Source: Candidatus Epulonipiscium viviparus
GTDB lineage: Bacteria > Bacillota > Clostridia > Lachnospirales > Cellulosilyticaceae
NCBI RefSeq assembly: GCF_030708075.1
Contig: NZ_CP117982.1
Location: 1,701,513-1,765,512, forward strand
Direction of reading: 5' to 3'
Length of the DNA stretch: 64,000 bases
The number at the start of each line of letters is the position of its first letter. Within the stretch, counting starts at the first letter, position 1. The notes beneath the pieces are model-generated. The model was not told the origin of the DNA. It did not search any database and was given only the letters and a program-made list of their open reading frames with translations. Positions 33,276-43,363 of this stretch are shown in pieces. Made by a program: the position numbers and the translations under genes.

Positions 33276-35405
33276 ATGAAAAAAAAACTATCTGCATTAG
33301 TAGTTGCAAGCATAATTAGTGCATCTTGCACAACAATTTTTGCGATGGATGAGACTGTATTTATTCCTGTCACGGTCGGGATTACCGAAAAGCTTGATGT
33401 AAGCCCCGAGTTTTTGCCCATGTCTGATCCAGATAATATTAGACAATGGCAGTTGAGCGTAACGATGTCAGATGAATTTGAAGGTACAACGCTAGATTCA
33501 ACAAAATGGTATAACTATCATCCGTTTTGGTCTGGAAGAGGTCCGTCGTCTTTTCATAAAGAAAATGTGAGGTTAGAAGATGGCAAATTAGTTCTTTCAT
33601 CTACATATGAAACTAAACCGACAGAAACTATGTTAGAATTATCCAAAAAACATGGAGACGAATATCACACTTATGCTTCAGCGGCAGTGGTCAGTAAACA
33701 TAAAGGTGGCTATGGCTATTATGAAGTTATGACTCGTACTGCACCTATTGGGATTTCGTCTTCGTTTTGGTTTAGAGACCCAAAAGTGGCAAAGCGTGAG
33801 ATAGATGTTTATGAACAAGTGGGAAGGCCAGAAGATGGAAAAATTATCAAGGCTGACGGCTCTACTATTCACGGAAATACGCATCGTTTTGATCACGCCG
33901 ATGGGAAAAATACCACCACGCCATTTGGTCTAGATACCGGAATTGATCTAACAGAAGATTATCATGTTTATGGACTCGAATGGGGCAAAGAAAAAATTCG
34001 ATTTTATTTTAATGGACAATTGATCTATGAATTTGATAATACAGAAAAGCAAGAAATTTTTGAGCCGTTACATGTAATATTTGATATGGAAACTAGATTA
34101 TTTGATATTAAAACTGATCCGCCTGCAGATAAATTTTATACTTACACAGCTGCAGATGGCGAAGAACGATACACCGGAGATTTTCATATAGAATACTTTA
34201 GAGCATGGCGTTCTGATATACCGCAAGATGCTTCTGATCATGAAATTGAAGTAGAAGACTATAAGCATCCTGTAAATAATTTTGTTGCGGAGTACGGTTC
34301 TCCCACAATTACTGAAACTAGCGTTGCTGTTGATCCAATTTGGGAAAGCATAAATCCTATATCATTCTTGCAGGCAAAACGCGGGGAAATAACGGAAGAT
34401 ACTGAGTTTGCTGGAGTTAAAGCTATGTGGGACGAAGATTATTTGTATATTTTATGTGAAGTTGTTGATTCTGAAATATATAAAAATCCAACAACAATTC
34501 ACGAAAGCGACTGTACTGAGCTCTATATTAGTGCATATAAAGATACTACCGGACAATACGGTATAGACGATTTTTGGATCAAAATTTATCCAGATGGAAC
34601 TACTCAAAATCATGAAAATATGCCAGAGGGAACTATTACCAACAGCTTTTTAACAGCAGCAGGATATACCACTCAGTATAAAATTCCACATAAGTTATAT
34701 AATGGTCGAACGGGGGCCACTATAGGTTTTGATATTCAGATTAATGATGCATCAGAGCAAGCTGGCGAGCGACATACCATTCTCGGTTGGAATGATACTG
34801 TCAATCAAGCATACAAAAATCCAGATGTGTTTGGACAGCTAACTTTTGAAGACGCCAATGGCAACAACGAGCCGATTTCAAATATGCCTCTAATTTCGTT
34901 TGAAGATGGAGAAGATCCTGTCTGGTCGGTATCTGGAAACAAAAAAACTGCGTCTGAAATTGTATCATACACAGGAGTAAAAGCAATGTCGGTGACAATG
35001 GGCGAGCGTGCCACCGCAAAAGCAGATGTAACAACTCTAACATTGGCTCCAAAAAGCGGAGTGTGGAATATCGGAGGAAATGATCGCATCGTGTCGACGA
35101 TAACAAATCCCACCGATGAAAGTATTCAAATTAGAATTAACGTAGCAGATGCGCTTGGAAATGAAAAGATGACGTATTTTACAGTAGCTGCAGGTGCGAC
35201 AAAAGAATGCGTCATAGGTCCAGAAAAGCTGGGTCGGCCGGGAGTGAATGCTTCTGCGTGGACTGGAGATGGGCACTCAGGAAATGGGGTTGATACTTCG
35301 CAAATCACAAAAATCAAGTATTATATGCCAGAAGAACTCGCAAATGTTATGAAAGGTGTAACTCAAGCAACGTTCGTTGTCGACGAAGTCTATGCTACTA
35401 GATAG
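33276..35405 (+). CDS. Secreted GH16 glycoside hydrolase (agarase-like) with CBM9 and C-terminal module
   Basis: Likely endo-acting hydrolase of a galactan such as agar, 709 residues. It has a signal peptide (about 1-24), a GH16 catalytic domain (about 48-325), a CBM9 module (about 330-525) and a C-terminal beta-rich module (about 535-709). The GH16 active-site motif E-x-D-x-x-E is seen as REIDVYEQ near residues 173-180. [10 protein letters not shown] and [12 protein letters not shown] resemble the agarase/carrageenase branch more than laminarinases. The ATG at 33276 follows AAAGGAGG. The GH117 gene in the same cluster supports agar as substrate. Laminarin or porphyran cannot be excluded from sequence alone. 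The C-terminal module is shared with two later proteins. Confidence 0.85.
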
Positions 35406-35429
35406 CAAATATAAGGAGGATTTATTTTT

Positions 35430-36152
35430 ATGAAAAAATTATCAGCGTTAGTTATAGCAGGAGTTATTGGAATTTCTACAACCAGTTTATTTGCAGCAGA
35501 GCCTCATCCAATCAAAACTATTAAAGCAGAATATGGCAGCCCGGTTATCGAAAAGACTGCCGTTGATCCATTGTGGGATAATGTATTGCCGGTTTCGTTT
35601 CTGCACGCAAAAAAGGGTGCGATTACAGAAGAAACAGAATTTCCATCAGTAAAAACTATGTGGGATGAGAATTATGTATATGTATTGGCGGAAATTGATG
35701 ATTCTGAAGTGTACAAAAATCCAGATCCAACAAAACTTCACGAAAGCGACTACCTCGAATTATATTTCAACCCGCTAAAAGATCGTGAAAACGATAAATA
35801 TGATGACACTGAGTTTTGGCTAAAAATTCATGCAGATGGAACTTTTGAGCATCATGTAAATGCGCCAGAAGGCATAGTTGCTAAAGGATTTTTAGTGGAA
35901 GGTGGATACGTTGCTCAAGTGAAAGTACCTCATGAGCTATATACCGCATCAGCAAACGAAACCATCGGCTTCGACTTCCAAATAAGTGACGCTTCGGCGG
36001 CAACAGGAGTACGTGATACAATATTAGGTTGGAATGATACAGTTAATTCGGCTTGGAAAAATCCTTCGGTAGTTGGGGAGTTGAAATTTGATCCGCCTTC
36101 TGTTCCTGCAACAATCCCGGCAGCGGCACCGATTCCAACAACAGCTCCATAA
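35430..36152 (+). CDS. Secreted single-CBM9 protein
   Basis: The 240-residue protein has a signal peptide (MKKLSALVIAGVIGISTTSLFA) and one CBM9 module filling the rest. A Pro/Ala/Thr linker-like tail (VPATIPAAAPIPTTAP) ends the protein with nothing after it. CBM9 modules bind sugar chain ends in known xylanases; the ligand here is presumably algal polysaccharide. It follows the GH16 gene by 24 bp. The dangling linker suggests that the ancestor continued into another module, as the neighbours do. No catalytic domain is present. Confidence 0.8.
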   Translation: MKKLSALVIAGVIGISTTSLFAAEPHPIKTIKAEYGSPVIEKTAVDPLWDNVLPVSFLHAKKGAITEETEFPSVKTMWDENYVYVLAEIDDSEVYKNPDPTKLHESDYLELYFNPLKDRENDKYDDTEFWLKIHADGTFEHHVNAPEGIVAKGFLVEGGYVAQVKVPHELYTASANETIGFDFQISDASAATGVRDTILGWNDTVNSAWKNPSVVGELKFDPPSVPATIPAAAPIPTTAP

Positions 36153-36184
36153 GCCATAGCACTTTAAATTACTGCCTTAAAAAA

Positions 36185-36212
36185 CGGAGCTGGATACATT
36201 AATCTGGCTCCG
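36185..36212 (+). other. Stem-loop between CBM9 genes
   Basis: CGGAGC (36185-36190) and GCTCCG (36207-36212) form a hairpin with a 16-base loop. There is no T-run, so it is more likely an mRNA-processing or stability element than a terminator (inference). Confidence 0.4.
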
Positions 36213-36275
36213 ATCGTTGCGCAAAATGCAGCGAATATACTGTTTAATTATTAGATACCAGGAGGAATTCATTTT

Positions 36276-42177: not shown

Positions 42178-42230
42178 TAGCATAAATTTTGGTTTTTTTG
42201 CTATTTTGCCTAGCGACATTTGAGAGTGCA

Positions 42231-42239
42231 TGTTATAAT
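42231..42239 (+). promoter_or_regulatory. Extended -10 promoter of the GH117 gene
   Basis: TGTTATAAT is a TGn-TATAAT extended -10 box about 65 bp before the start. No good -35 box was seen. Confidence 0.5.
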
Positions 42240-42263
42240 GCGAAACAAGATCCGATAATCGAT

Positions 42264-42297
42264 CTAAAAATATTTAGGGACTAAAAATATTTAGGGA
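42264..42297 (+). repeat. 17-bp tandem duplication overlapping the GH117 ribosome binding site
   Basis: CTAAAAATATTTAGGGA occurs twice in direct succession (42264-42280 and 42281-42297). The second copy runs into GGGAGG, the binding site for the ATG at 42305, so the first copy creates a decoy TTAGGGA. Confidence 0.9.
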
Positions 42298-42304
42298 GGT
42301 TCTA

Positions 42305-43363
42305 ATGAAGAAAAGCGCAGCTACAATTAGAGCAGAAGAACGCAATTACTATCAAGGGCCGGAATGGTTTTGTACGTTCCCAACTAATCCTATTAAAGGT
42401 TTGGAGAGAGAGGAAGGCATTCATAGACGCGACCCGAGTAGCGTGATTAAGGTTGATGATACGTACTATGTTTATTACACGAAGTCGTATGGACCGCACG
42501 TGGGATTTAGTAGCGGAGATTTGAGTGCGAAGGTGTTTCCATGGGATTACGCCGAAATTTGGGTAGCCACATCAAAGGACGGGTGGACTTGGGAAGAGCA
42601 AAACGTTGCGTTAAAGCGCGGTGAGCCAGGCCGATTTGATGATAGAAGCGTCTTTACGGCAGAGATCTTGAAGTATGATGGAAAATATTACCTAGTGTAC
42701 CAAACTGTTCAGGACCCATACGTTAATAGAAGTTTTGAGAATATTGCAATAGCAGTAAGTGACAGCCCGCTGGGGCCGTTTGTAGGATCCGATGAACCGA
42801 TTTTAACGCCAACAATGGATGGTGAATGGGATGGGGACGAAGACAATAGATTTTTGGTAAAGAAGAAAGGGAGCTTTGACAGCCACAAAGTTCATGATCC
42901 GCTTTTATTTCATTATAGAGACAAGTTTTACCTGTACTATAAGGGCGAAAGAATGGGCGAAGAGATGTATATGGGTGGACGTGAAACCATGTGGGGGCTC
43001 GCAATTGCAGATAAAATTGAGGGGCCGTATGTCAAGAGCGAATATAACCCGGTAACCAACTCGGGGCATGAAACTTGCTTATGGCAATATGACGGAGGCA
43101 TGGCTGCGTTTTTGAGAACAGATGGCGTTGAAAAAAATACCATTCAGTTTGCACCAGACGGAATCAATTTCGAGATAAAGTCGGTTATTCCTAGTGGCCC
43201 TATTGCACCTGGACCGTATAGACCGGACGAACCAACGACGTATCCGCTAGAAGGAATGAAGTGGGGGCTCTCTCACAAGCTAGATGGCTGGGGTCACCTA
43301 GTGCGCTTTGATTTAAGTACGCATCAAGCCGATATTTATAAGCGCAAAAGTAAGTTTAATTAG
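42305..43363 (+). CDS. GH117 family alpha-1,3-(3,6-anhydro)-L-galactosidase (neoagarobiose hydrolase-like)
   Basis: Likely cuts neoagarobiose or neoagaro-oligosaccharides to release 3,6-anhydro-L-galactose. The 352-residue protein has a five-bladed propeller-like repeat pattern. Candidate catalytic residues are D43 (HRRDPSSV), D198 (SHKVHDPLLF), and H255-E256 (NSGHETCLW). The GHE pair and the spacing (155 and 58 residues) agree with the characterised GH117 active site as I recall it (D90, D245, H302, E303 in the Bacteroides plebeius enzyme). There is no signal peptide, so it should act in the cytoplasm after uptake of the disaccharide. GH43 or GH32-like enzymes share the fold, but the GHE pair favours GH117. 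No transporter gene is adjacent. Confidence 0.82.
   Translation: MKKSAATIRAEERNYYQGPEWFCTFPTNPIKGLEREEGIHRRDPSSVIKVDDTYYVYYTKSYGPHVGFSSGDLSAKVFPWDYAEIWVATSKDGWTWEEQNVALKRGEPGRFDDRSVFTAEILKYDGKYYLVYQTVQDPYVNRSFENIAIAVSDSPLGPFVGSDEPILTPTMDGEWDGDEDNRFLVKKKGSFDSHKVHDPLLFHYRDKFYLYYKGERMGEEMYMGGRETMWGLAIADKIEGPYVKSEYNPVTNSGHETCLWQYDGGMAAFLRTDGVEKNTIQFAPDGINFEIKSVIPSGPIAPGPYRPDEPTTYPLEGMKWGLSHKLDGWGHLVRFDLSTHQADIYKRKSKFN

What the first reader, a model, noticed from the sequence alone, without database searches (positions are those of the whole stretch)
33276..43363. Compact agar-degradation locus in a Gram-positive, with eight CBM9 copies
Five consecutive genes encode a secreted GH16 enzyme, three secreted proteins made only of CBM9 and linker modules, and a GH117 enzyme. 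The GH16/GH117 pair is the classical agar route (polymer, then neoagaro-oligosaccharides, then anhydrogalactose). It is known mainly in marine Bacteroidetes and Proteobacteria, where the binding modules are usually other families. A clostridial version built on CBM9 would be a distinct design.
Basis: partly seen in the sequence, partly recalled or inferred. Interest (0 to 1): 0.75.

Follow-up and report, generated by a model that had tools for sequence, protein, structure and literature searches.

The report
Seaweed-digestion cassette of giant gut bacterium
A giant bacterium living in the gut of seaweed-eating surgeonfish carries a small set of genes for one enzyme predicted to cut red-seaweed polysaccharide and three secreted proteins that contain only sugar-binding modules; the seaweed-digesting ability was already reported, but the chains of binding modules without any enzyme are unusual.

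Summary
The window is from Candidatus Epulonipiscium viviparus (Lachnospirales), the giant surgeonfish gut symbiont. At 33276-42131 a secreted GH16 enzyme and three secreted enzyme-free proteins carry exactly eight CBM9 modules; a GH117 gene follows at 42305-43363. GH117 is secure: E=5e-131 to a solved relative, all seven active-site residues conserved. Four corrections. (1) The GH16 is porphyranase-type (closest solved relative ZgPorA), not a classical agarase. (2) Two of the three 'CBM9-only' proteins, and the GH16, end in a further module that folds like the CBM-like domain of GH50 agarases. (3) The conserved unit is the GH16+CBM9 cassette, syntenic in two sister species; GH117 lies elsewhere in them and here follows a terminator-like hairpin. 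(4) Red-galactan digestion by this lineage is already published. The genome also holds GH50 x3, GH86 x2, a lambda-carrageenase, 32 sulfatases and an anhydrogalactose pathway. The unusual part is the enzyme-free binding proteins: CBM9 copy number varies between species, half of the usual CBM9 aromatic clamp is replaced, and a second array of nine enzyme-free proteins sits beside a GH86. Their function is untested.

The parts
33276..35405 (+). W1: secreted GH16 (porphyranase-type, residues ~49-312) + CBM9 (34308-34856) + Agarase_CBM-like module (34902-35402)
35430..36152 (+). W2: secreted single-CBM9 protein, no catalytic domain (CBM9 at 35541-36098)
36276..39617 (+). W3: secreted enzyme-free protein, four CBM9 (36390-36941, 37071-37604, 37716-38267, 38433-38984) + Agarase_CBM-like module (39120-39614)
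39696..42131 (+). W4: secreted enzyme-free protein, two CBM9 of identical protein sequence (40128-40676, 40947-41495) on proline-rich PATPDV linkers + Agarase_CBM-like module (41682-42128); the ORF is open from the GTG at 39648
42142..42176 (+). Terminator-like hairpin with T-run between W4 and GH117
   Evidence: -19 kcal/mol for the 51-nt stretch, z -4.7, 0 of 200 shuffles as stable (missed by the simple scan)
42305..43363 (+). GH117, predicted 3,6-anhydro-alpha-L-galactosidase (neoagarobiose hydrolase); no signal peptide visible, so probably cytoplasmic
   Evidence: genome paralogues

Best explanation
This is one of several red-algal galactan (porphyran/agar) utilisation loci of Ca. Epulonipiscium viviparus. 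W1 is secreted and endo-cleaves porphyran-type galactan. W2-W4 are secreted non-catalytic proteins whose repeated CBM9 and agarase-type CBM modules bind the algal wall or its cut chains multivalently, keeping substrate open or holding enzyme and product near the cell. Oligosaccharides are then taken up, and cytoplasmic GH117 (this copy and two paralogues) removes anhydro-L-galactose for the pathway encoded beside the second GH117. Shown by sequence or structure prediction: gene content, domain identities, conserved active sites, signal-peptide-like N termini, conserved cassette, catabolic genes. Inferred: enzyme specificity, ligands of the CBM9 and C-terminal modules, multivalent binding, and uptake (no transporter was identified).
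For: GH16 closest to PorA, with W85, R88, W165, R167, EIDVYE (175/177/180), H199 and H203 identical to it. GH117 active site 7 of 7 identical to PpGH117 (roles from PMC11574756). Genome context: two more GH117; an AHG cycloisomerase homologue (5xd7, 1.2e-100), aldehyde dehydrogenase and KduD-type SDR beside one; three GH50; two GH86-type proteins and a lambda-carrageenase; 32 sulfatases. The cassette is syntenic in G116 and G081 next to the same housekeeping genes. The C-terminal module folds like the GH50 agarase CBM-like domain (model pLDDT 95; Foldseek 2.7e-6, VIA Z 14; hhalign 96%). Both other CBM9 copies in the genome are also fused to GH16.
Against: No activity or binding data. Trp71 of the TmCBM9-2 aromatic clamp is absent from all 22 cassette CBM9 modules of three species (H, Y, G, D or S instead), so binding could be altered or lost. 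No surface anchor was found on W1-W4, so holding to the cell is unsupported. The GH117 gene is not next to the cassette in sister species.
Confidence: 0.65

Rival explanations
1. The five genes are one agar operon: the GH16 is an agarase and the GH117 finishes the product.
For: All genes are consecutive and on one strand. GH117 acts on neoagaro-oligosaccharides, and ZgPorA leaves mainly neo-series agarobiose motifs (PMC9771727), so the two could still act in series.
Against: Solved agarases are weak hits to the GH16 (best 2e-7) against PorA at 2e-31. A strong terminator-like hairpin precedes GH117. In G116 and G081 the GH117 orthologue is elsewhere while the cassette stays. The genome has dedicated GH50 agarases at another locus.
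Confidence: 0.15
2. The CBM9 and C-terminal modules do not bind algal galactan: they serve as spacers or stabilisers, or bind the bacterium's own surface to anchor the proteins.
For: Trp71 of the CBM9 clamp is replaced in every cassette copy. A Caldicellulosiruptor CBM9.1 lacks all expected binding residues and its role is unclear (PMC8280721).
Against: The second clamp position is aromatic (W or Y) and Glu77 is kept in all 22 cassette CBM9 copies. The C-terminal module is related to a domain of GH50 agarases. W2-W4 have no enzyme that would need a spacer.
Confidence: 0.17
3. W3 and W4 are scaffoldins of a cellulosome-like complex that dock enzymes.
For: Tandem modules and proline-rich linkers look scaffoldin-like.
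Against: No cohesin or dockerin in the window proteins; a single dockerin-type hit in the genome, inside a 6879-aa ORF.
Confidence: 0.03

Closest known systems
beta-porphyranase A of Zobellia galactanivorans (PDB 3ILF/4ATE; unclassified group next to GH16_11/12, PMC6827312)
   Same: Closest solved relative of the W1 catalytic domain; cleft and catalytic residues identical
   Different: W1 adds CBM9 and an agarase-type CBM and lies in a Clostridium; GH16_11/12 are described as almost wholly Bacteroidetes
GH117 3,6-anhydro-alpha-L-galactosidases (PDB 3R4Y, 4AK5, 5TA7)
   Same: Full-length match, all seven active-site residues
   Different: No signal peptide visible; neighbourhood unlike a Bacteroides PUL
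CBM9 modules TmCBM9-2 (1I82) and CkCBM9.3 (7NWN)
   Same: Sequence-family match, one clamp aromatic and Glu77 kept
   Different: Trp71 replaced; modules occur in enzyme-free multi-copy proteins rather than on a xylanase
N-terminal CBM-like domain of GH50 beta-agarases (PF17992; 4BQ2-5, 5Z6P, 6XJ9)
   Same: Best sequence-profile and structural match of the C-terminal module
   Different: Here C-terminal, or forming whole enzyme-free proteins
CBM9-CBM32-PL7 alginate lyase TsAly7B (PMC7024181)
   Same: Marine precedent for a CBM9 raising activity on an algal polysaccharide
   Different: Single CBM9 on the enzyme; alginate, not galactan
Reported GH16/GH50/GH86 inventory of surgeonfish Bacillota_A symbionts (Ngugi 2017, Sannino 2023, as cited in PMC11333855)
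   Same: Same lineage and same enzyme families
   Different: The CBM9 and agarase-type CBM arrays are not mentioned in the text I could read; the two primary papers were not available

Membership tests
GH16 beta-porphyranase, PorA type | Closest characterised relatives are porphyranases rather than agarases or laminarinases | tested here: met
   PorA 2e-31, PorB 2e-21, 4AWD 2.5e-18; agarase 6aii 2e-7; laminarinase 3azx 1.6e-9
GH16 beta-porphyranase, PorA type | ExDxxE catalytic motif and the W and R residues of the cleft | tested here: met
   conservation of W, R and H positions in porphyranases from PMC9771727
GH16 beta-porphyranase, PorA type | Hydrolysis of porphyran | not testable with these tools
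   needs enzyme assay
GH117 | Full-length similarity to GH117 and not GH43 | tested here: met
   5e-131 against 1.2e-8
GH117 | Asp90, Glu167, Asp245, Lys260, His302, Glu303, Asp320 (PpGH117 numbering) | tested here: met
   constant numbering offset of 2 to the 4AK5 chain
CBM9 | Pfam CBM9_1 above curated cut-off | tested here: met
   8 copies in the locus
CBM9 | Trp71/Trp175 aromatic clamp of TmCBM9-2 (a variable feature of the family, PMC8280721) | tested here: not met
   the Trp175 position is W or Y in all 22 cassette copies, the Trp71 position never W (Y in 2)
Agarase_CBM (GH50 CBM-like domain) | Sequence and fold match of the C-terminal module | tested here: met
   (29 of 39 members match PF17992 at E<=0.1, best 3.3e-10); window copy of W1 is just over the Pfam cut-off (26.7 against 26.3 bits)
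Single GH16-GH117 agar operon | Conserved adjacency and no terminator between GH16 cassette and GH117 | tested here: not met
   hairpin with T-run between them; not adjacent in two sister species. Transcription itself was not measured
Cellulosome | Cohesin/dockerin modules on the proteins | tested here: not met
   none in the window proteins; one dockerin-type hit in the genome

The most novel reading that the evidence does not exclude
Epulonipiscium has a diffusible, enzyme-free 'capture' system for seaweed galactan: multivalent CBM9 proteins with a remodelled half-clamp pocket, and single or double agarase-type CBM proteins, secreted beside the endo-enzymes and expanded by module duplication. 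They would bind cut chain ends or open the wall matrix, doing for a giant Gram-positive cell part of what surface SusD/E-type binding proteins do for Bacteroidetes.
Probability: 0.3. Interest if true: 0.65.

Novelty: new variant of a known kind. Interest (0 to 1): 0.45.

Why it matters
It replaces a general 'agar locus in a clostridium' with a named organism, a porphyranase-type enzyme and a testable question: why a giant gut symbiont encodes so many secreted binding proteins without enzymes. If the modules bind galactan, they widen the known ligand range of CBM9 and give a role to free-standing agarase-type CBM domains. If they do not, they are a caution against reading CBM names as binding. 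The locus also shows that GH16 and GH117 sitting side by side does not prove a shared operon.

Tried and rejected
Full-length AlphaFold model of W1 from a 4-sequence alignment: unusable, pLDDT 33; not interpreted. Profile search of the C-terminal module against PDB sequences: nothing significant, resolved by the fold search. L072 beta-helix/CBM6 proteins against PDB: no hit. Sigma-70 promoter scan: no more sites than in shuffles, so no promoter is claimed. Laminarinase/licheninase reading of the GH16: rejected. GH43 reading of the 42305 protein: rejected; the weak GH117-like hits at C1:225-226 kb lie in two other ORFs and were not examined further. Cellulosome: rejected. Ngugi 2017 and Sannino 2023 are not held. 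A phrase search for CBM-only proteins returned nothing, which is not evidence of absence.
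Full report
What it is. The window (G000:C1:1701513-1765512, a 3.28-Mb single-contig genome) belongs to Candidatus Epulonipiscium viviparus: the window's GH117 is 99% identical to a contig of that species, as are most of the neighbouring proteins. The species is placed in Clostridia, Lachnospirales. It is the giant symbiont (type B) of the surgeonfish Naso tonganus (PMC3416734, abstract; link of type B to this species from the record title).

Observation. ORFs W1 33276-35405 (709 aa), W2 35430-36152 (240 aa), W3 36276-39617 (1113 aa), W4 39648/39696-42131 and GH117 42305-43363 (352 aa) are as described. 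Pfam gives CBM9_1 in W1-W4 with 1, 1, 4 and 2 copies. A genome search recovers the same eight plus only two others, both fused to GH16 domains elsewhere. W1-W4 start with signal-peptide-like sequences; I saw no SLH or LPXTG anchor in them (sequence inspection).

GH16 specificity. The W1 catalytic domain is closest among solved structures to Zobellia porphyranase A (2e-31), then an unnamed GH16, porphyranase B and the B. plebeius porphyranase; agarases and laminarinases are far weaker. W85, R88, W165, R167, E175, D177, E180, H199 and H203 are identical to PorA in the alignment. PMC9771727 reports one W, one R and one H (W58, R61, H162 of CcGH16-3) as structurally conserved between CcGH16-3 and PorA; I take these to be W85, R88 and one of the two His here, by motif. 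PorA belongs to a small unclassified group near GH16_11/12 (PMC6827312), so a formal subfamily number cannot be given. In 295 order-level genomes this GH16 type was found only in Epulonipiscium, 4 of the 5 genomes of that genus in the sample.

GH117. The hit to 3r4y is 5e-131, with 5ta7 and 4ak5 close behind; the best chain outside the GH117-like ones is 1.2e-8. All seven active-site residues discussed for PpGH117 in PMC11574756 are identical, with a constant numbering offset. The protein has no visible signal peptide. Two paralogues exist. One, at 957 kb, has beside it an aldehyde dehydrogenase, an AHG-cycloisomerase homologue (5xd7, 1.2e-100), a hydroxyacid dehydrogenase, an alcohol dehydrogenase and a KduD-type SDR, which fits anhydrogalactose catabolism. 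GH117 was found in 6 of 295 order-level genomes and in 1 of 391 class-level genomes, that one being this genome itself. These samples are subsets, so they are rates, not absences. One of the order-level genomes outside the genus, G184, has GH117 next to aldehyde dehydrogenase and cycloisomerase-like genes, and G170 has one next to a GH16-like gene and an ABC transporter (read from the ORFs), so clostridial agar loci are not unique to this genus.

Extra module. W1, W3 and W4 share a ~165-aa C-terminal module. Most relatives match PF17992 Agarase_CBM (29 of 39); hhalign to the N-terminal domain of this genome's own GH50 proteins gives 96%. A model from 39 sequences has pLDDT 95, and its best structural matches are the GH50 agarase CBM-like domains, Z about 14, followed closely by CBM11 and CBM30. 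It is a CBM-fold module; ligand unknown.

Enzyme-free arrays. The C-terminal module has 18 clear copies in the genome (a nineteenth hit is marginal). Twelve lie at C1:800-809 kb in nine secreted single- or double-module proteins beside a GH86-type protein, and similar arrays exist in the sister species. CBM9 arrays also vary: 1+1+4+2 here, 1+1+2+2 in G116, 1+1+6 in G081. A tree pairs several CBM9 copies by position between species and shows recent lineage-specific duplications. W4's two CBM9 are identical in protein; over 688 nt of the duplicated unit 14 bases differ. The W4 linker differs in length between two assemblies of the species (827 against 871 aa). Outside the genus, CBM9 in the order mostly occurs singly in long ORFs, with a few ORFs holding two.

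CBM9 pocket. In all 22 cassette copies of three species Glu77 is kept and the Trp175 position is W or Y, but the Trp71 position is H (14), G (3), Y (2), D (2) or S (1). PMC8280721 describes CBM9 as mainly reducing-end binding and notes that clamp residues vary among family members. So binding to cut galactan ends is plausible but not shown.

Gene organisation. W1 and W2 are separated by 24 bp. A hairpin with a T-run lies between W4 and GH117 (z -4.7); weaker hairpins lie at W2/W3 and W3/W4, so even W1-W4 may be partly separated transcripts. In G116 and G081 the GH16+CBM9 cassette stays next to the same housekeeping genes (prephenate dehydrogenase and glmU; nagB in G116), but GH117 is elsewhere: beside a different gene set in G116, and beside fliD without the cassette in G081. 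I therefore treat the cassette as W1-W4 and GH117 as a neighbour.

Wider system. GH50 x3 (one searched against PDB; all three with the same domains), two GH86-type proteins and a lambda-carrageenase, PorA-type GH16 at two further loci at least, a GH2 beside one of them, and 32 sulfatases show a broad red-galactan programme. Bacillota_A symbionts of surgeonfish have been credited with GH16, GH50 and GH86 (PMC11333855, citing Ngugi 2017 and Sannino 2023). The enzymatic capability is therefore known; I could not read the two primary papers, and they may already mention CBM9.

Mechanism and limits. Best reading: W1 cleaves porphyran-type galactan outside the cell, W2-W4 bind substrate or chain ends, products are taken up and trimmed by GH117 and other enzymes. 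No transporter was identified and no binding or activity was measured. The capture role is inference.

Noticed in passing
L070 (G000:C1:796000-813000), ORFs at 4247-12994: Array of nine secreted enzyme-free proteins made of one or two agarase-type CBM modules (four similar 218-aa copies among them) beside a GH86-type ORF; similar arrays in sister species.
   Followed up: partly
L071 (G000:C1:2386000-2400000): Three tandem ~900-aa GH50-type beta-agarases with Big_2 domains.
   Followed up: partly
L073 (G000:C1:2900000-2909000): Lambda-carrageenase (CGLA domains), a sulfatase and an agarase-type CBM protein side by side.
   Followed up: partly
L040 7186-16908 (G000:C1:1064000-1083500): 3240-aa secreted protein with GH16, CBM9, Sortilin-Vps10-type repeats, many Ig-like domains and a C-terminal SLH domain: a possibly surface-anchored relative of W1.
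   Followed up: no
window 21976-22581: ABC transporter ATPase of 201 aa whose frame ends early; residues resembling a continuation appear in another frame just downstream, so a frameshift is possible.
   Followed up: no
window 43575-57701: After GH117 come fliD, a fliS-like gene, a motility-accessory-factor-like protein and what looks like a nonulosonic-acid sugar biosynthesis set (read from the ORFs, not searched).
   Followed up: no
window 39648-42131 versus L006 6361-8976: W4 linker (18-bp repeats coding PATPDV) differs in length between two assemblies of the same species, 827 against 871 aa.
   Followed up: partly
L039 (G000:C1:895000-912000): Several PorA-type GH16 ORFs or fragments in opposite orientations, two of them (533 and 379 aa) with identical C termini: perhaps a recent inverted duplication.
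   Followed up: no
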